A DNA stretch of 43,162 nt, from NCBI GenBank assembly GCA_021299385.1, contig JAJTGZ010000042.1, positions 1 to 43,162 on the forward strand. Direction: 5' to 3'. This document shows positions 7,253 through 41,381 of the stretch, one piece after another. The first letter of the stretch is position 1. The number at the start of each line of letters is the position of its first letter. A program made the position numbers and the translations under genes. Below the pieces are notes generated by a model, which made no database searches, had not been told where the DNA came from, and saw only the letters and a program-made list of their open reading frames with translations. This stretch comes from Phycisphaeraceae bacterium. GTDB lineage: Bacteria > Planctomycetota > Phycisphaerae > Phycisphaerales > UBA1924.

Positions 7253-7353
7253 CTAGGGGGTATCTCGATTGTCTCAAAGAACCTACTTATGCCTCGGTAC
7301 CTTTGTTCGGCCTTCGGCCCTTAGGCCCAACACCTCACACCCAACCACTTCCC

Positions 7354-10326
7354 TCAGCACCCCGCAAAGAAGCGGTTGAGGAAGACGATGATGTCGTCGG
7401 CCGTGAACTGACCATCGGGGGTCGTGCTCTGGCCGGGGCCAGCAACATCGGCCCGCAGGTCGCTGGCAAAGAACCAGTTCAGGTAGACGATGATGTCGTC
7501 GGCCGTCAACTGACCGTCAGCCCCGATCGACTGCCCCGGGCCGGCGATGTCGCTTAGCCCGCAGGGCGTTGCGGTGTAGGCGAGCGTGAACGTCCCGGCA
7601 CCGAAAGTGCCCAGCGTCTTGCCCGCCACGCGGAAGAGGTACGTCGTGCCGCCGGTGACGGGGAAGTTGCTGATGACGCTCTGGGTCGACGTGCCCGTGC
7701 CGCAGACGCCCGCGGCAACATCGTCGCTGCACGCGATGTCCCCGCCCCCGCAGCCGGTGTAGATCGACAGGACGGTGTTGAACGATGTCCCCGGGCACGT
7801 CGAAGCGCGCACCGTCCCGTTGTACGCCGGCGTGTAGGAGAACCACACGTCGCGCGTGTTCAGGTTCGTCACCAGGTTGCAGCTGGCGTTGTCCCCGCTG
7901 TTGGTCGCCTCGGTCGTGTCAAAGGCGTTGGCCCCCAGCACCGCAGGTATTGGGCTTTCGCACAAATCCCCGGCCGCGGCGGCGGGGGCCTGCAGAATCC
8001 TCACCTGCCCCACGTTGCTGAAGATGCTCGAACTCTTGACAACTATCCGGATGCTCACGGGCACACCCTGCACCACGGGCAACCTCGCCACCCGGCTGCG
8101 GCTTGAGCTGCAAGAGGCCGACGGCCCGGTGAGGTAGTCGTCGTTGCAGGCGATCTCGCTGCCGTCCTGCGCATAGACGGTAACGATCGTGTCAAACGCC
8201 GCACCGCACGTCTCGATGCGGGCATCACCCGTGAACGTCGGGGTGTAGTTGTACCAGACGTCCCCGGTGGTAACAGCAAACGTGCAGGTGCTCGGGCCGA
8301 AGTTCGGGTCTTCAACAAACGCCCCGCAGGCGTTGTAGTTGAACGTCCCCTCCTCGACGGGCAACGCCGTGGCGAAGAGGTCGTTGCTCAGCGTGACCGT
8401 GGGGTCGAGCTGCACTGCCGTCGCCGTCGACTGCGCCGGCGTGCCACAGGGGCCCGTGGCAACGCAGTAGTAACTCCCCGCGTCCCCGGCCTTGGCGTTG
8501 TTCAGACGCAGCTGGCTGGCGTTGGCACCAACAACCGTCCCCCCGGCGGGGGTGGTCCCGTCGGTCAACGGGGACCCGTCCTTATACCACTGGTACGTAA
8601 TCGGCAGTGTGCCCGAGGCCGCGACGTTCAGGATCGGCGTGCTGCAACGAGAGAAGTTGAACGACGCGGCAGGGTTGGACACGATCGTCGCACCCACGCA
8701 CGCGCTAGCGCTGCTCTGCCGCAATGCCCACGGCACCGCGCCGATGATCCGCTGGTTCCCACCCTGGAACCCAACAATCACGCTCCCGTCTGGGGAGATA
8801 GCCGAGGGGAAGCCGATCTTGGGCAGCCCGCGCGTCGTGTCACCGTTGTCGCCGGTGGGGCCGTAGTCGGCCGTCACGCCGGGCACACCCAGAGTAACGA
8901 GGTAGTCGTACCAGTCCACGATCTCCCCGGCCGTGCCGCCGGCAACGCTCGGGTCGGTCCAGATCCAACCCCCGGCCATGAACGAGCCGCAGGTGCTGTA
9001 CGTCGCCGTGCCGACGACAATCCTCCCGTCATCGCTCATCCCGTTGACAGAAATGTTCGGCGGCGCGCCGCAGCTGGTAACACTGCTCGGCAGCCACGAC
9101 GCGGCGGCCATGTTGTTGACGTTGATGCTTACGGGCCCGTCCCACGATGAGGTCCCGGCGTTCCACGTCCACTTGCCGATGAAGGGTGTCCCGCCGGTAA
9201 CGATGTCATCACCCGTGCCCGATGTGCCCAGCGTCGTAGTGATCTGGTCGGTGATAGCCCGACCGACGATGATCGTCCCCGCTGCGTTCATGCGGTAAGA
9301 GCCCGGCGTCGAGCTGCTCGTCAGCGGCCCAACCAGCGCGGGGGTATCACCCACCTGCGCACGGGTATACGCCTTCCCATTGGGAAGATACGTCATCCCC
9401 CAGTTGCTCGTGGCGGTGTTGTAGTTCCAGATTACGATGCGACCGCCATCAGGATCGGCACTCACGCCGGTGCTCGCGTTGTGCTCCTGCGCGCCGACGA
9501 TCACCAGCCCGTCATCACTGATGGCGTACGGGTTGCCCGTGCGCCGGCGCGTCGAGGCCGCCGCGCTTGCGGTGCGGAAGGGCGTGGGCAGGACCGTCAT
9601 CGCCCCGGCCCCGGCGTTGGCCTGCGAATCCCACACAACCGGCCGCCAGTAGAACGAGTTAGCGCTGATATTCGTGCCTGGCCCCGTCGCGGTCCCGAGC
9701 GTCCCGTTCTGGTTATACGAACTGACATACGCCAGCGCAAGGATGTACCGCCCATTGGCCGAGATCGCGTTGGGCGTCAGGAAGTTGCCCGTGGATTGGC
9801 CGCTGGAGCTTGGCCCAAAGACACCCGAGTTGCCCAGCCCCGAAGAGTTGGGGGTATACGCGATGATCCCGGGCACACCCATGTTCAGCAGCGTGCTGGT
9901 GATCGCATCCCAACGCGCGCCCCCAAACTCCGTCGCCCCAGGCTGCGTCGGCGAGGGGACCAGCGTCGGCACGGCATATCCGGGGGCCAAGAAGGCGGGG
10001 GAGACGCCCGTCGCCGAGTTCCCGATCGCAAACCGCGTCGGCCCGTTGAGGATTGAGGTTGCCAGGTAACGACCATCGGCAGAGATGTAGCCGTTGCCGG
10101 GGGTCCCGGCATCACTAAGCGTAAGCCCGGCACCGTTGAGCGCCCAACGCGTTGCGTTCGCCGTCCCCGTCCCGCCCGAACCGCCGATGTAGACCGTCCC
10201 ACCCTGCGAGTTGCTCACAGCCTGGGGCGTGCCCGTCCCCAGCGAGGTCAGCGTCGGCTGCCCCAACGCCAAACCGGCAAGCGTGGCGACGAAAAGAGTT
10301 CCCAAGGCAAGGGTTCGAGTCTTCAT
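7354..10326 (-). CDS. Large secreted protein with Ig-like domain, repeats and dockerin-like tandem tail
   Basis: A 990-residue exported protein of unknown binding specificity. Seen: a signal peptide (MKTRTLALGTLFVATLAGLALG), a long N-terminal region of repeated strands resembling beta-propeller or HAF-type repeats (SADGRYLATSI, SANGRYILALAY, SDDGLVIVGA, SPDGSVIVGF), and an Ig-like domain near residues 545-650 (YQWYKDGSPL ... DAGSYYCVATG). Two pre-peptidase-like domains follow, near 675-800 and 805-920 (DVWYNYTP, DVWFSYTP). The tail (about 925-990) has two copies of a GPGQ...LTADDIIV(Y/F)LN(W/R)FF motif ending in GC. The start is firm: AGGAGG lies just upstream. Related tails are known on planctomycete surface proteins; anchoring or sorting is inferred. 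The same tail ends the 18781-21695 protein. Confidence 0.9.
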   Translation of the reverse strand: MKTRTLALGTLFVATLAGLALGQPTLTSLGTGTPQAVSNSQGGTVYIGGSGGTGTANATRWALNGAGLTLSDAGTPGNGYISADGRYLATSILNGPTRFAIGNSATGVSPAFLAPGYAVPTLVPSPTQPGATEFGGARWDAITSTLLNMGVPGIIAYTPNSSGLGNSGVFGPSSSGQSTGNFLTPNAISANGRYILALAYVSSYNQNGTLGTATGPGTNISANSFYWRPVVWDSQANAGAGAMTVLPTPFRTASAAASTRRRTGNPYAISDDGLVIVGAQEHNASTGVSADPDGGRIVIWNYNTATSNWGMTYLPNGKAYTRAQVGDTPALVGPLTSSSTPGSYRMNAAGTIIVGRAITDQITTTLGTSGTGDDIVTGGTPFIGKWTWNAGTSSWDGPVSINVNNMAAASWLPSSVTSCGAPPNISVNGMSDDGRIVVGTATYSTCGSFMAGGWIWTDPSVAGGTAGEIVDWYDYLVTLGVPGVTADYGPTGDNGDTTRGLPKIGFPSAISPDGSVIVGFQGGNQRIIGAVPWALRQSSASACVGATIVSNPAASFNFSRCSTPILNVAASGTLPITYQWYKDGSPLTDGTTPAGGTVVGANASQLRLNNAKAGDAGSYYCVATGPCGTPAQSTATAVQLDPTVTLSNDLFATALPVEEGTFNYNACGAFVEDPNFGPSTCTFAVTTGDVWYNYTPTFTGDARIETCGAAFDTIVTVYAQDGSEIACNDDYLTGPSASCSSSRSRVARLPVVQGVPVSIRIVVKSSSIFSNVGQVRILQAPAAAAGDLCESPIPAVLGANAFDTTEATNSGDNASCNLVTNLNTRDVWFSYTPAYNGTVRASTCPGTSFNTVLSIYTGCGGGDIACSDDVAAGVCGTGTSTQSVISNFPVTGGTTYLFRVAGKTLGTFGAGTFTLAYTATPCGLSDIAGPGQSIGADGQLTADDIIVYLNWFFASDLRADVAGPGQSTTPDGQFTADDIIVFLNRFFAGC

Positions 10327-18780: not shown

Positions 18781-21695
18781 ATGAAGAACTCAAAGAGGCT
18801 GGCTCTCATAGCCATTGCCGGCTTGGCAACGAGCCTCTCGGCTGCACCTCGTGAGAGCGTTACATTCACGACGGTCCCCTCGCAGGGTTTGATCAACGAT
18901 CCGGACACCACGACGCTGACGGCCACTTTCGCCGGCAGCGACGGTGCCGGGGCGTACAACGCGACGTACCTGACGGTTTCGGGGAGCATCACCAAGTTGA
19001 TCGATGCCACGCAGCACAGTGAGGCGGCGATCCTCATCACGCCCCCGTCCCGACGGGCGCCAACCCCGGCCCGCAGCAGAACTTCACCTTAGCGAATGTC
19101 GATGTCGATGGCCCAGCCACGGCCCCGGCGACGCGGACCTTCGCCGCCGCGGCTGGTGATACCGTCCGCCTCGTCCGCCTCTCAGCCGTGGGCACCGGTC
19201 GCACCTCCAGCCCGACGGCCAACTCGAACGTCAACCCGCTCAGCCGGGCAAGGTTCCAGCTCGTCGCCCCCGATGGCGTAACGGTCAGCGCCATCATTCA
19301 GCCGTGGGCAACCGCGACCCAGTCGTCGAGCACCGCCGAGGCTGTCGCGTTCATGAACGCGGCGGTGCCCAGCGGCGGCACCTGGACGCTGCGCGCCTGG
19401 GACACAGGCAACTTTGCGGGCATCGACAGCACCCTGCAGACCCTGACGGTCTCATTCCTGAGTCCCCCCACTGATGCCGTGCAGGTCGCCCTGACCGAGG
19501 GCGTCTGGAACTCGGCCACCAAGGCCCTCCCGGCCGGGGGGACGGCATGGTTCTTCTTTGACCTGCCCAACATGCCCACCGGCAGCGTCGTGGATATCGA
19601 CACCGAGGGGTCCGCGCTCGTGCCGGCCAACGACACGGCCATCGCGCTCTACCGCACCACAACCACGGCCGTGGAAGACCAGGACAACAACGACGGCACC
19701 GGGCTGCTCTCGGCCCTCTCCTACGGCCCCGGGGCCCTCATCGGCGCGTACAGCAGCTCCGGCGTCCGCTTCAACGGGCGCGATGGCCCCGCCAGCGGCC
19801 TGGGCGCGCCCTCACGCTACTACGTCGCCGTCGTCGGTGGCGATGCCACCACCGCCGCCCCGGCAACCTTCCAGACCGGCTACATCACCCTCCCGCCCGT
19901 GGCCAACGCGGGCACCGCCAACCTCCGCGTCCGCTACTACACCGCCGGCGCACCGAACCAGACCCCGCCGGCTACGCCCATCAACCTCGTCAACGGCGGC
20001 GCGTGGGCCACGGCCACCGAGAGCATCGGCATCAGCGACGTCAAGTGGTTCACCTTCACCACCCCCGCCTTTGACGCCACCGGCGCGCTGGACATCGATG
20101 TTGCGGGCACCAACCTCCTGCCCGTCAACGACACAGACATCGCCCTCTACAACGCCACGGGCACGCTCATCGACAGCGATGACACCGACGGCCCCGAGGA
20201 ACTCAGCCAGCTCAGCTACGGCGCGGGCCGGCGCAACAGCACGGACGATGCCGCTCGCTTTGCCGGGCAGGACGGGAATACATCAGGCACCGCCGGGAAC
20301 ATCGGGCCAAACACCACCTACTTTCTGGCCGTGGGCACCGGCAGCAGCACCACGCACGCGACCACCTTCAACACGCAGCCCGCCGCCGGCTCACTCAACG
20401 CGGGCAGCACCACGGTGCGCGTCCGCGCTTGGGCGACCGCCGCGCCGACAGAGCCCGTCCCGCCACCCGCAAGCGAGAGCCTCGGCAACATCGACGGCAA
20501 CTCCACCGCGACGGACACAGAGACCATCCCCGTCGGCTCGGTCAAGTGGTACGTCTTCTCGCTGACAACGCCGATCCATGCCCTCTCCAACTCGGCCCTG
20601 CAGATCGACACCGAAGGGTCCAGCACCTCCCCAACCTTGCTGGACACCTCCATCGGCCTCTACAACGCCACCGGCACACTTGCTGTGAGCGACTCGTCCG
20701 ACGGCAGCGGCTTGCTCGGCACGCTCACCTTCGGCGCCGACAACCGCCCCGCGCCGGGCGATGGCCTGCCCTATGCGGGCCGCGACGGCGAGCTGCTCGC
20801 AGGCACCTATTACCTAGCCGTTGCACCCGGCGGGGCCCCCACCTTCGCGGCCGACTTTGCCGTGACCGGCCTGAGCACCACCCAGAGCGGGGACGTAACG
20901 ACCACCATCCGCACCTTCAGCCCCTCGATCGCCGACGCCACGCCCCCGAGCGGGGTCGAGGCCATCGGGCTTCTCGGCACGAGCACCCCGGGTGCCGAGG
21001 CCGTCACCACACGCACACACACCGTCGTCAACGGCAACGACGCCAAGTGGTACTCGTTCGCCATCGCCGGCGAGGTCAACGCCACCAACACCTTCTATGT
21101 CGACATCGACACCGAGGGGACCGGCCCGGGCGTCGCGCCCACCATGGGCAACTTTGTTGATACTGAGATCGGCCTCTACTCCAGCATCGGTGCGCTGCTG
21201 GGCAACGATGACGACAGCGGCAGCGACCGGCGCTCGGCCCTCTCCTTCGGCAGCACCACCCCCGTCCGCCCCGCCGTGCCGACGGGGACCTCCGTTGTCG
21301 ACGTCGACCGCAATGGGCGCAACGGGAGGCTCATCGCGGGCACCTACTACCTGGCCGTCTCAACCTACAACACCACCCACAACACCTCGGACTTCAGCCT
21401 TACGCTCCCGACCACCCGTGCCACGTCCACCGGCGACCGCGTCGTCAACGTGCGCACAAACCTCCCGGGCAACGCCTGCCCGAACCCCAGCAACGTCTCC
21501 GGGCCAGGCCAGAACACCACGGCCATCGACGAAGAACTGACCGCCGACGACATCATCGTCTTCCTCAACCGCTTCTTCGCCAACGACCTGCTCTCCAACG
21601 TCTCCGGCCCGGGCCAGAACACCACGGCTCTCGACAACGAACTGACGGCAGACGACATCATCGTCTTCCTCAACCGCTTCTTCGCCGGGTGCTGA
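18781..21695 (+). CDS. Large secreted repeat protein with dockerin-like tandem tail (frameshifted)
   Basis: About 970 residues if a one-base shift is repaired. Seen: a signal peptide (MKNSKRLALIAIAGLATSLSA); an N-terminal domain (to about residue 230) with SAVGTGRTSSPTANSN; four related domains of about 140-170 residues marked by KWY(S/V)F or AWFFF, DI(D)TEGS, D(T/I)xIxLY, GRDG and GTYYLAV (pre-peptidase-like). The tail has two copies of NVSGPGQNTTA...LTADDIIVFLNRFF, ending in GC. The N-terminal part reads in one frame to a stop near 19092, and the rest continues in another frame from about 19047. A run of five C at 19042-19046 is where one base is missing; six would restore the frame. The tail DNA closely matches that of the 7354-10326 gene, and the product is probably surface-associated. 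Confidence 0.85.
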
Positions 21696-21779
21696 CAGAG
21701 GGGTGAGGGAGCAGGGCCGAGGGCCGAGGCCATGAAAAAACTTCACCCTCACCCCTAAAAACTAACACCTAAAAACCAA

Positions 21780-39500: not shown

Positions 39501-39737
39501 TCCGAGTGGTGGGTAGGCGCAAAAACCGCTTGTGGGTGAGTGTACCAAGGGCAATCCGATGCCGGGGTGCTCGTGGGCGTGTGTGTTGAGTGAATACCTC
39601 GTCTTTGGGCCTTGATACCAGCCTTAGGGGGGCTAGCATCTAGCCGTGGATGCGCCCGGCGCACGAATCTGGGTTTTTGAGCATCTATTACTGTCTGGAC
39701 CTGGCTCAAGGCCGCTCACTGTTTTATGGAGATAGTT

Positions 39738-41381
39738 ATGCAGAATGTCCGTCCCTATGCGTCAGCCATTGCTGTTCCTCTCGCCTTGGCACTTCTGGCT
39801 GGCTGTACGATCGACGGCTCCAAGGGTGGCACGTCGATGACGCCGACGAACGCCGCGCCTGCCGCGCCGGTCAACGTGTCAGTCAAGACGGTTACGGTCA
39901 GCAACAACCCGGTCCCGGCCGCGCCGGCCCCGGTGCCTGCCCCGGCCCCGGCACCGGTGGGCACGTCGACGACGACGGTCTTCTACCCGACGGGCAGCGA
40001 GTCGGGTGCCGCACTCCGCTTTGACCGCACGGCCCCGGGCGAGGTCAACGCCGGCGGCGAGTTCACCTATGAACTGCGTGTTACCAACGTAACGCGTGTG
40101 GCCCTCGAGAACGTGATGGTTACCGAGACGATCCCGAGCAACTTCACGCTCGTCCGCACCGACCCGGCCGCGACGGTCGCAGGCTCGGCGGGCACCTTCA
40201 ACATCGGCTCGCTCGCCCCCGGCGCGAGCAAGACGATCAAGGTTACCGGCAAGGCCGGCACGTCCGGCTCGATCAGCAGCTGCGCGACGGTTACATACTC
40301 GCTGCCGATCTGCAGCACGATCAACGTCGTCGCCCCCGCCCTGAAGATCGAGAAGACCGCCTTTGGCTCGGCCCAGGGTGGGAGCACCGAGACGATCTGC
40401 GACATCGTCCCCGTCCGCCTCATCGTCAGCAACCCGGGCACGGGCGTTGCCCGCAACGTAACGGTTACCAGCAACCTTCCCGCGGGCCTGACAACGACCG
40501 ACGGCAAGCAGACGGTCGATTTCTCTGCCGGGGACCTGGTTGCCGGCCAGAGCAAAACCTTTGAGTTCAACACCAAGGCGGCTCGTCCGGGCAGCTTCAC
40601 AAGCACGGCGTCGGCCAAGGGCGACAACGGCCTGACTGCTCAGAGCAACAACGTTTCGATCGCCTTCCGGGGCAGCAGGTTTGCGATCACCCAGGTTGCC
40701 GAGAGCGCAACGCTCTACCCCGGTCGCCCGGCGAACTTCACCGTCGAGGTCCGCAACACGGGTGATGGCCCGGCTAAGAACGCCGTGGTCCAGGCCACGC
40801 TCCCGGCTGGCGCGTCGCTGATCTCGGCGACCGAGAACGGCCAGGCCGCTGGCGGGAACGTCAGCTGGACGCTGGGGACCTTTGCCGCGGGCGCGAGCAA
40901 GACGCTCAAGTTCACGGTCAACCCGGGCAGCAACACGACGATCAACAGCGTTTCGACCATCCGTGGCGAGTGCTCCGAGGCGGCCTCGGCGAACGCGACG
41001 GTTACGTTCCAGGGCGTGCCCGCGCTGCTCACCGAGCTGATCGATGGTCCTGACCCGATCGGCCCCGGCGAGGAGACCACCTTCAAGTTCACCGTCCGCA
41101 ACCAGTCCGGGACCACCGGCGATAGCAACCTCAAGGCCGTCATCACGCTGGGCAACGGGCTGACCTTCGTCAGCGGCACGGGCCCCTCGGCTGTGTCGGC
41201 CGCGGGCAACGTTGTTACGCTCGCCGGCATCCCGACCCTGGCCGCAGGCCAGGAACTGGTCTGGACCGTCAAGGCCAAGAACACCAACCCCGTCGGCGAC
41301 ACGCGCACGAGCTTCAGTGTTACGACCGACTACTTCAAGAACCCGATCGTCGGCACCGAGTCGACCAACCTCGTCCGCTGA
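39738..41381 (+). CDS. DUF11-repeat lipoprotein (OmcB-like)
   Basis: A 547-residue envelope lipoprotein. Seen: a signal sequence (YASAIAVPLALALLAGC) with lipobox LAGC; a Pro/Ala linker (VPAAPAPVPAPAPAPVG, about residues 58-80); then four consecutive DUF11/conserved-repeat domains of about 110-120 residues. The domain motifs are ELRVTNVTRVALENVMVTETIP, RLIVSNPGTGVARNVTVTSNLP, EVRNTGDGPAKNAVVQATLP and KFTVRNQSGTTGDSNLKAVI. The pattern resembles the chlamydial Cys-rich outer membrane protein OmcB, but Cys residues are few. The ATG at 39738 is preferred because GGAGA lies five bases before it. A strong terminator follows. Confidence 0.88.
   Translation: MQNVRPYASAIAVPLALALLAGCTIDGSKGGTSMTPTNAAPAAPVNVSVKTVTVSNNPVPAAPAPVPAPAPAPVGTSTTTVFYPTGSESGAALRFDRTAPGEVNAGGEFTYELRVTNVTRVALENVMVTETIPSNFTLVRTDPAATVAGSAGTFNIGSLAPGASKTIKVTGKAGTSGSISSCATVTYSLPICSTINVVAPALKIEKTAFGSAQGGSTETICDIVPVRLIVSNPGTGVARNVTVTSNLPAGLTTTDGKQTVDFSAGDLVAGQSKTFEFNTKAARPGSFTSTASAKGDNGLTAQSNNVSIAFRGSRFAITQVAESATLYPGRPANFTVEVRNTGDGPAKNAVVQATLPAGASLISATENGQAAGGNVSWTLGTFAAGASKTLKFTVNPGSNTTINSVSTIRGECSEAASANATVTFQGVPALLTELIDGPDPIGPGEETTFKFTVRNQSGTTGDSNLKAVITLGNGLTFVSGTGPSAVSAAGNVVTLAGIPTLAAGQELVWTVKAKNTNPVGDTRTSFSVTTDYFKNPIVGTESTNLVR

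What the first reader, a model, noticed from the sequence alone, without database searches (positions are those of the whole stretch)
7354..7560. Near-identical tandem dockerin-like tails on two unrelated secreted proteins
The last 65 or so codons of the 7354-10326 and 18781-21695 genes encode the same doubled motif (GPGQ...LTADDIIVFLNRFF, ending GC) and their DNA is strikingly alike, while the rest of the proteins differ. The motif resembles a dockerin EF-hand pair, but the first loop has GPGQ where calcium-binding Asp residues are expected. A final GC invites the idea of a Cys-dependent anchor or sorting signal. DNA-level likeness suggests recent copying or gene conversion of the tail as a module.
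Basis: partly seen in the sequence, partly recalled or inferred. Interest (0 to 1): 0.55.

Follow-up and report, generated by a model that had tools for sequence, protein, structure and literature searches.

The report
Cysteine-clasped dockerin tails, homogenised genome-wide
The matching ends of these two proteins are copies of a C-terminal docking module that sits on dozens of proteins in this planctomycete; the module probably closes on itself with a disulfide bond, its copies evolve together within a species, and what it docks to is unknown.

Summary
The tails are real. They belong to a domain NCBI has already named, dockerin_GC (NF041540; 71.8 and 49.6 bits, cut-off 29), with 48 matches in this genome. 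The window tails are alike (67-68% protein, 73% DNA), not near-identical; their DNA likeness alone is weak (z = 1.6). The second gene is not one open frame. GPGQ lies in an insertion within an EF-hand-like loop that keeps Asp at positions 5 and 12 and Asp (sometimes Asn) at 1; a homologue of gene 1 in another genus has the canonical loop there. The terminal Cys goes with a Cys before the first repeat (150 both, 14 neither, 12 one of 176 tails, p = 1e-12), which suggests a disulfide clasp rather than an anchor. Tails evolve in concert: of 25 ortholog pairs, 23 (G000) and 16 (G003) tails resemble unrelated tails of their own genome, on average, more than the ortholog's. Long exact DNA sharing among unrelated carriers supports recombination. 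No cohesin was found in this genome, and no sortase in 14. Best reading: a calcium-dependent, disulfide-clasped docking tag read by a shared, unidentified partner.

The parts
7354..10326 (-). Gene 1: protein of 990 aa (hydrophobic signal-peptide-like start, Ig-like domain, galactose-binding-like domain) ending in the tail
   Evidence: translation; Pfam
7357..7563 (-). Tail of gene 1: 69-residue GC-type dockerin, from the head Cys (codon 7561-7563) to the terminal Cys (codon 7357-7359); stop codon 7354-7356
   Evidence: NF041540 71.8 bits; AlphaFold2 mean pLDDT 96.8, pTM 0.84
7495..7551 (-). Repeat 1 expanded EF-hand-like loop DIAGPGQSIGADGQLTADD (Asp at loop positions 1, 5 and 12; PGQSIGA inserted between positions 4 and 5, aligned by eye)
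   Evidence: comparison with canonical tails of relatives; residue counts
7393..7449 (-). Repeat 2 expanded EF-hand-like loop DVAGPGQSTTPDGQFTADD
   Evidence: as repeat 1
7468..7503 (-). Helix 1 of the predicted tail (residues 21-32)
   Evidence: AlphaFold2 model
7363..7401 (-). Helix 2 of the predicted tail (residues 55-67)
   Evidence: AlphaFold2 model
18781..19047 (+). Start of gene 2 (signal-peptide-like MKNSKRLALIAIAGLATSLSA), frame 1; 90% identical over 90 residues to its paralogue on contig C20
19050..21695 (+). Remainder of gene 2 in a different frame (the paralogue's match changes frame between 19047 and 19050; real or an assembly error)
   Evidence: open frame 19023-21692
21477..21692 (+). 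Tail of gene 2: 72-residue GC-type dockerin, Cys codons 21477-21479 and 21690-21692, stop codon 21693-21695; Asn at loop position 1 in both repeats
   Evidence: NF041540 49.6 bits; sequence
21699..21756 (+). Inverted G-rich repeat and CCGAGGG units right after the stop codon of gene 2 (3' flank that resembles the flank of other tail genes)
7330..7344 (-). G-rich TTGGGTGTGAGGTGT stretch after the stop codon of gene 1, resembling a degenerate unit of the period-7 repeat behind other tail genes

Best explanation
The tail is a GC-type dockerin: two EF-hand-like loop-helix repeats that should fold around calcium into one small C-terminal docking module. In this genus the loops are expanded by a GPGQ-type insertion. 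A Cys just before repeat 1 and the Cys at or near the C-terminus most likely form a disulfide that ties head and tail of the module together, doing covalently what ring-stacking (the intramolecular clasp) does in a cellulosomal type I dockerin. Dozens of proteins carry the tag in this genome and in many relatives; copies in one genome tend to share one helix face, and that face differs between species in both repeats at once. So the tags most likely dock their proteins to one shared surface or extracellular partner that is not a recognisable cohesin, and the copies are kept alike by recombination plus selection to fit that partner. Shown: domain identity, genome-wide spread, retained acidic positions, Cys-Cys covariation, concerted evolution. 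Inferred: the disulfide itself, calcium binding, docking, and the existence of a shared partner.
For: NF041540 over cut-off in both window genes; 48 matches in the genome, 45 over cut-off; matches at E 0.001 in all 37 family-f1 genomes searched (3 to 87 each, many lists capped at 81 scored candidates) and in 9 of 24 others. Three of eight tails tested, all with DxNxDG-type or DxTxDG-type loops, score as Pfam Dockerin_1 and EF-hand over cut-off (proteins 1-3), and the homologue of gene 1 in genome G006 carries the canonical loop at the same place. Cys covariation: 150 tails with both, 14 with neither, 10 with only the terminal and 2 with only the head Cys, of 176 in three genomes, Fisher p = 1.1e-12; head Cys 3-5 residues before loop position 1 in 147 of the 152 tails that have it. 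With one member per ortholog pair in G000 + G003: 69/1/6/7, p = 3e-6; the 4 Cys-less G000 tails are Cys-less in their G003 orthologs too. Head-to-tail clasp in a cellulosomal dockerin: PMC4728124, passages seen. Concerted evolution. Confident model with two loop-helix units.
Against: Cys-less tails may form an inherited class, so the covariation counts are not independent events; 10 tails have the terminal Cys without the head Cys. Foldseek and VIA-align found no solved structure matching the model, the tail profile matched no PDB sequence, and Pfam Dockerin_1 is not among the families matched by the 50 loop-expanded tails. No partner was identified: no cohesin in the genome by Pfam model or by a profile of relatives' domains. 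Concerted evolution is weaker in G003 (16 of 25 pairs), ortholog tails still exceed the mean of unrelated cross-species tails in 18 of 25, and the tail of gene 1 is as close to its Prado162 homologue (78%) as to other G000 tails (mean 77%). Concerted evolution could also arise without any shared partner.
Confidence: 0.58

Rival explanations
1. Cys-dependent anchor or sorting signal: the terminal Cys is lipidated, linked to the surface or read by a processing enzyme, as in C-terminal sorting systems such as MYXO-CTERM.
For: The tail is C-terminal and ends in Cys in most copies: of 40 two-repeat G000 tails, 36 have a C-terminal Cys and 34 of these end at it (listing). Exosortase is present in 14 of 14 genomes searched.
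Against: The terminal Cys covaries with a head Cys. No transmembrane stretch or basic tail follows it. Exosortase is present in both tail-rich and tail-poor genomes; sortase PF04203 was found in 0 of 14. Fourteen of 176 tails lack both Cys, and the four shared by G000 and G003 do so in both species.
Confidence: 0.1
2. Cohesin-based scaffold ('planctosome'): a cohesin too divergent for the models binds the tails, as proposed for the planctomycete family Nemodlikiaceae in PMC6461901.
For: PMC6461901 (passages seen) reports cohesin/dockerin modules in Nemodlikiaceae with no evidence for a role in cellulose degradation. One of 37 G000 carriers has a lamin-tail domain and one a peptidase M10 domain, echoing that model loosely.
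Against: PF00963 gives 0 matches in this genome and matches in 5 of 61 genomes, not following tail number. A profile of six cohesin-like domains from relatives gives none in G000; in the other 9 genomes it finds only one of its own rows (G036) and one partial match at E 0.56 in G002.
Confidence: 0.22
3. The tails look alike only because selection for a common partner and codon preference drive parallel change; there is no DNA copying.
For: The window pair itself shows only z = 1.6, and about two thirds of the codon-identity excess is also seen between species (0.061 of 0.092). The likeness just past the stop codon is largely shared G-richness (9.4 of 24 positions against 8.2 when each flank is shuffled).
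Against: Exact DNA matches of 36 nt or more: 111 of 780 tail pairs in G000 against a mean of 5.7 (at most 16 in 40 runs) when codons are permuted among the tails, and 36 of 2278 against 1.7 in G003; 0 of 2720 cross-species pairs. Among carriers without related bodies the counts are 103 of 641 and 29 of 2030.
Confidence: 0.17
4. The tail is a calcium- and disulfide-stabilised cap that protects the C-terminus of secreted proteins, with no partner; homogeneity is neutral gene conversion.
For: No partner found; a small clasped domain could act as a stabiliser.
Against: The helix face tends to be uniform within a species and differs between species in both repeats at once; a mere cap would not obviously need that.
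Confidence: 0.15

Closest known systems
NCBIfam NF041540, dockerin_GC ('GC-type dockerin domain-anchored protein')
   Same: Both window tails and 43 further places in the genome score over its cut-off; C-terminal position, two repeats, terminal GC in most.
   Different: The loops of this genus carry a GPGQ/GPNQ/GPGP-type insertion.
Type I dockerin (Pfam PF00404) of cellulosomes
   Same: Two loop-helix EF-hand-like repeats; three canonical GC-type tails of relatives score over the Pfam cut-off; head and tail of a type I dockerin are also held together, by Tyr-Pro stacking (PMC4728124, passages).
   Different: The loop-expanded tails do not match PF00404, a covariant Cys pair stands at head and tail, and no cohesin is found in the genome.
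Cohesin/dockerin 'planctosome' proposed in PMC6461901
   Same: Planctomycete dockerins without an evident role in cellulose degradation.
   Different: That model needs a cohesin; none was detected here. It is a hypothesis in that paper (passages seen).
C-terminal sorting signals (LPXTG, PEP-CTERM, MYXO-CTERM, T9SS tails)
   Same: One C-terminal domain shared by many unrelated proteins.
   Different: No membrane segment or basic tail; a folded module; sortase found in 0 of 14; exosortase does not follow tail number. Features of these systems are recalled.

Membership tests
NCBIfam NF041540 dockerin_GC | Score over the curated cut-off (29 bits) | tested here: met
   71.8 and 49.6 bits
NCBIfam NF041540 dockerin_GC | C-terminal position with terminal GC | tested here: met
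Type I dockerin (PF00404) | Match to the Pfam model over its cut-off | tested here: not met
   no PF00404 match for the gene 1 tail (protein 8), PF00404 absent from the table of 18 families for 50 aligned tails; canonical tails of relatives do match (proteins 1-3). One of 37 full carriers matches PF00404 (where in that protein was not shown)
Type I dockerin (PF00404) | Two EF-hand-like loops with acidic ligands, each followed by a helix | tested here: met
   Asp at loop positions 5 and 12 and Asp or Asn at 1; two loop-helix units in the model. The loop is longer than canonical and position 3 lacks its usual ligand
Type I dockerin (PF00404) | Calcium-dependent folding | not testable with these tools
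   needs biochemistry
Type I dockerin (PF00404) | Structural match to solved dockerins | tested here: inconclusive
   no match by Foldseek or VIA-align for a 69-residue model
Cellulosome or cohesin-dockerin system | Cohesin partner encoded in the genome | tested here: not met
   0 by PF00963, 0 by relatives' profile; genome about 95% complete, so a missing contig or a divergent cohesin is possible
Sortase or exosortase type C-terminal sorting signal | Short motif, membrane segment, basic tail | tested here: not met
   of 36 G000 tails with a C-terminal Cys, 34 end at it, inside a compact predicted module
Sortase or exosortase type C-terminal sorting signal | Dedicated transpeptidase that follows the tag | tested here: not met
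   sortase 0 of 14; exosortase 14 of 14 irrespective of tag number
Type IX secretion tails | T9SS core protein SprA present | tested here: inconclusive
   0 of 14, but no control genome rang either
Disulfide-clasped module | The two Cys are bonded | not testable with these tools
   only covariation was tested

The most novel reading that the evidence does not exclude
A loop-expanded, disulfide-clasped dockerin serves as a uniform, species-specific address label on several dozen proteins per genome, read by one unidentified non-cohesin receptor; recombination between unrelated genes keeps the labels in step as that receptor drifts, so each species has its own lock-and-key code.
Probability: 0.28. 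Interest if true: 0.78.

Novelty: new variant of a known kind. Interest (0 to 1): 0.5.

Why it matters
Planctomycetes of this group put one C-terminal module on dozens of proteins, and I found nothing in print on what this named family binds. The work replaces a 'Cys anchor' idea with a testable disulfide clasp, shows that the module is a loop-expanded version of a known dockerin family, and shows that copies in a genome tend to change together, which points to a shared partner and gives species-specific baits for finding it. If a non-cohesin receptor exists, it would be a new docking system and a possible source of orthogonal protein-assembly tags.

Tried and rejected
Cohesin as partner: PF00963 in own genome 0, 5 of 61 genomes without following tail number; six cohesin-like domains of relatives aligned and searched in 10 genomes gave only one of the profile's own rows (G036) and one partial match at E 0.56 in G002. 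The G011 match sits in a Thr-Pro-rich protein that may be contamination (my impression, not tested).

Sorting enzymes: exosortase does not follow the tag, sortase 0 of 14, SprA uninformative because no control rang.

Structure comparison: AlphaFold2 gave a confident model but neither Foldseek nor VIA-align found a solved relative, and the sequence profile matched no PDB chain. With so small a domain I do not read this as a new fold. A canonical tail of a relative compared with PDB sequences matched mostly calmodulins and troponins in the 60 rows shown of 312, weakly (best E 2e-4), and says only that its loops are EF-hand-like. Weak Pfam matches of some loop-expanded tails to TrkA_C (13 of 50), DUF7237 (8 of 50), PDZ (4 of 50) and others were taken as chance and dropped.

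Replaced analyses: the first Cys count mis-parsed two tails with chance extra motifs; one search is the corrected count. A first codon comparison aligned tails without gaps and misaligned the window pair; one search replaces it. A null drawn from body codon usage was replaced by one that permutes codons among tails, which is stricter but does not control position-specific codon preference. Likeness past the stop codon looked like evidence for copying, but most of it is shared G-richness (9.4 of 24 positions against 8.2 after shuffling in G000, 7.9 against 7.0 in G003), and the same repeat also follows unrelated genes, so I give it little weight. The second Cys pair in G017 was noticed first and tested afterwards, so its p-value (1e-6) is post hoc.

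Rows dropped before the Cys count: 13 excluded (8 G000, 2 G003, 3 G017: single-repeat, truncated or frame-broken tails). In addition 2 of 72 G003 matches (below cut-off) and 6 of 77 G017 matches (3 below cut-off, 3 not covered by the stretches fetched) were not read. Ortholog test: 37 of 40 G000 carriers had a body of 60 residues or more; 25 reciprocal best pairs, some weak (for example 34% over 97 residues). The Prado162 signature set (37 tails) is pattern-selected at loop positions 9-16, so only its loop insert and later helix positions are informative.

Literature: 'GC-type dockerin' 0 papers; 'NF041540' or 'dockerin_GC' 0; dockerin with 'concerted evolution' 0; a looser search of the same kind listed no dockerin paper among its first 10 of 876. 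Searches for dockerin with planctomycete, Planctomycetota or Phycisphaer/cysteine listed 25, 8 and 15 papers; from titles and abstract starts only PMC6461901 bears on the subject. Apart from passages of PMC6461901 and PMC4728124, papers were seen only as listings.
Full report
WHAT IS THERE. Gene 1 (7354-10326, minus strand, 990 aa) ends in a 69-residue tail from a Cys at codon 7561-7563 to the terminal Cys at 7357-7359. Gene 2 ends at 21695 in a 72-residue tail of the same kind. Both match NCBIfam NF041540, dockerin_GC, at 71.8 and 49.6 bits against a cut-off of 29. The tails are 67-68% identical in protein and 72.8% in DNA. Codons for shared residues are identical in 30 of 48 cases against 24.7 expected (z = 1.6), so this pair on its own does not prove copying. 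Gene 2 is broken: residues 2-91 of its paralogue on contig C20 match frame 1 up to 19047 (90% identity), and residues 105-1002 match frame 3 from 19050. This may be a real frameshift or an assembly error.

HOW WIDESPREAD. The genome (2.63 Mb, 111 contigs) holds 48 matches, 45 over the cut-off. Of 61 genomes (own plus 60 relatives) 46 have matches at E 0.001 and 42 over the cut-off: all 37 of the same family have at least 3 matches (3 to 87, many lists capped at 81 scored candidates) and 9 of 24 others have some. Two relatives can be named: G003 has the contig lengths of Phycisphaerales bacterium PN19_bin_20, and G001 holds letter for letter a tail of Phycisphaerales bacterium Prado162 (L086). 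A scan of one genome for each of 84,980 species with the most conserved stretch (TADDII[VA]F) returned 60 loci, all from these two genomes, so the exact TADDII form looks confined to this genus; the scan may leave out the window's own genome and is limited to that pattern. Carriers are varied: among 37 scanned, Ig-like domains in up to 6, beta-propellers and Kelch in 3, and single cases of esterase, peptidase M10, glucose/sorbosone dehydrogenase, peptidyl-arginine deiminase and lamin-tail domain. A crude signal-peptide rule fired in 20 of 40 carriers; 15 of the 40 were cut at the 5' end of the stretch held, and among the 25 uncut it fired in 17.

THE LOOP. Tails of other genera in the same family have the canonical form, for example CPADLTGDGVVDFNDLLAFLNLFNAGDPRADFNGDGTIDFNDFLAYMNLFNGGC, and three such tails score as Pfam Dockerin_1 and EF-hand over cut-off; five others of the eight tested, with changed or expanded loops, do not, nor do 50 tails of this genus. 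Aligned by eye, the window loop reads D1-I-A-G-[PGQSIGA]-D5-G-Q-L-T9-A-D-D12; G031 and G016 show other insertions at the same place. In 50 aligned tails position 1 is Asp in 47 and 44 (repeats 1 and 2; the rest Asn), position 5 Asp in 50 and 49, position 12 Asp in 50 and 50. Position 3 has lost its usual side-chain ligand. The homologue of gene 1 in G006 (44% over query residues 248-899; 55% in the stretch before the tail) carries a canonical CDADMNGDGTVDFNDFLEFLNLYN...AGC tail at the same place, while the homologue in G001 (64%) carries a GPNQ tail. This ties the GPGQ tail to the canonical dockerin independently of any profile score.

THE CYSTEINES. In three genomes (usable tails: 40 of 48 G000, 68 of 72 G003 and 68 of 77 G017 matches), 150 tails have a Cys within eight residues before loop position 1 and a Cys after helix 2; 14 have neither; 10 have only the terminal one and 2 only the head one (Fisher p = 1.1e-12; each genome alone p of 8e-4 or less). 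The head Cys lies 3-5 residues before position 1 in 147 of 152 cases; the background in the bodies is 0.7% Cys. Keeping one member of each G000-G003 ortholog pair leaves 69/1/6/7 and p = 3e-6, and the four Cys-less G000 tails are Cys-less in their G003 orthologs. These counts treat paralogous tails as independent, which they are only in part. In G017 a second pair, loop position 2 and helix position 15 of repeat 2, is present together in 4 tails, singly in none and absent in 66 (noticed first, tested afterwards). A free terminal Cys used as an anchor does not predict the covariation; a head-to-tail disulfide does. In a cellulosomal dockerin the head and tail are likewise held together, by Tyr-5/Pro-66 ring stacking, called an intramolecular clasp (PMC4728124, passages seen; the 2013 paper it cites is not held).

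CONCERTED EVOLUTION. Of 25 reciprocal-best pairs between G000 and G003, the tail is on average 58% identical to the ortholog's tail, 70% to other tails of G000 and 60% to other tails of G003. The ortholog lies below the within-G000 mean in 23 of 25 pairs and below the within-G003 mean in 16 of 25; it exceeds the within-genome maximum in none, in either genome. So the effect is strong in G000 and weaker in G003. Some ortholog signal remains: ortholog tails exceed the mean of unrelated cross-species tails in 18 of 25, and the tail of gene 1 is as close to its Prado162 homologue (78%) as to other G000 tails (mean 77%). One protein with a 79%-identical body has a 57%-identical tail. The two pairs above the G000 mean are Cys-less tails. 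The helix face is species-specific in both repeats at once: position 18 is Asn in 98% and 95% of G000 repeats, Gly in 76% and 70% of Prado162; position 20 is Phe (98%, 98%) against Tyr (84%, 95%); position 17 is Leu in G000 (98%, 95%) against Ile in G003 (79%, 71%); the loop insert starts PGQ in G000, PNQ or ANQ in Prado162 and most often PGP in G003. An asymmetry is shared by all three: Trp is the commonest residue at position 19 of repeat 1 and Arg in repeat 2. At the DNA level 111 of 780 G000 tail pairs share an exact match of 36 nt or more, against a mean of 5.7 and at most 16 in 40 codon permutations, and 36 of 2278 in G003 against a mean of 1.7; among carriers without related bodies 103 of 641 and 29 of 2030; no cross-species pair of 2720 does. 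Against this: two thirds of the codon excess is also seen between species, so part of it is position-specific codon preference or common descent.

PARTNER. Cohesin PF00963: none in this genome, 5 of 61 genomes, unrelated to tail number; a profile of relatives' cohesin-like domains finds none in G000. Sortase: 0 of 14. Exosortase: 14 of 14, tail-rich or not. PMC6461901 (passages seen) proposed a cohesin-based 'planctosome' in Nemodlikiaceae; the present genome does not show its cohesin.

STRUCTURE. AlphaFold2 on 50 aligned tails gives mean pLDDT 96.8 and pTM 0.84, with helices at residues 21-32 and 55-67, each following a loop. No solved structure matched. The Cys-Cys distance could not be measured.

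VERDICT. A named but apparently unstudied domain family (no paper found), here in a loop-expanded variant. The evidence favours a disulfide-clasped docking tag read by a shared unknown partner over a Cys anchor. Calcium binding, the disulfide, docking and the partner are inferred.

Noticed in passing
G000 contigs, e.g. L289, L293, L294, L298; window 7330-7344 and 21699-21775: A period-7 G-rich repeat (TTAGGTG units, also CCGAGGG) begins a few bases after some stop codons. TTAGGNNTTAGG occurs 62 times in the genome against 3 for the pattern read backwards, in about 29 clusters by my count; 11 of 48 tail matches have it within 120 nt downstream, others follow unrelated open frames. Function unknown; terminator or recombination site are guesses.
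   Followed up: partly
window 19047-19050: Gene 2 changes frame between its signal-peptide part and the rest; a paralogue on contig C20 is open over 1002 codons.
   Followed up: partly
G000 C44:64, C74:14, C40:47, C60:154, C38:328, C41:439: Six of 48 tail matches lie within 450 nt of a contig start (places), as if shared tail DNA broke the assembly; not tested statistically.
   Followed up: no
G017 tails, e.g. on C38, C34, C31, C14, C17: Some canonical tails carry an extra Cys pair within repeat 2 (ADC...CFLN), present together or not at all at the tested positions (4, 0, 66).
   Followed up: partly
L045, L027, L032, L033 (G000) and their G003 orthologs: Four carriers lack both Cys in both species; two of them are the only pairs whose tails resemble the ortholog more than the G000 average, as if outside the homogenised pool.
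   Followed up: partly
window 39726-41381: Open frame with DUF11 repeats and a weak match to a chlamydial cysteine-rich outer membrane protein family (9.4e-5, below cut-off).
   Followed up: no
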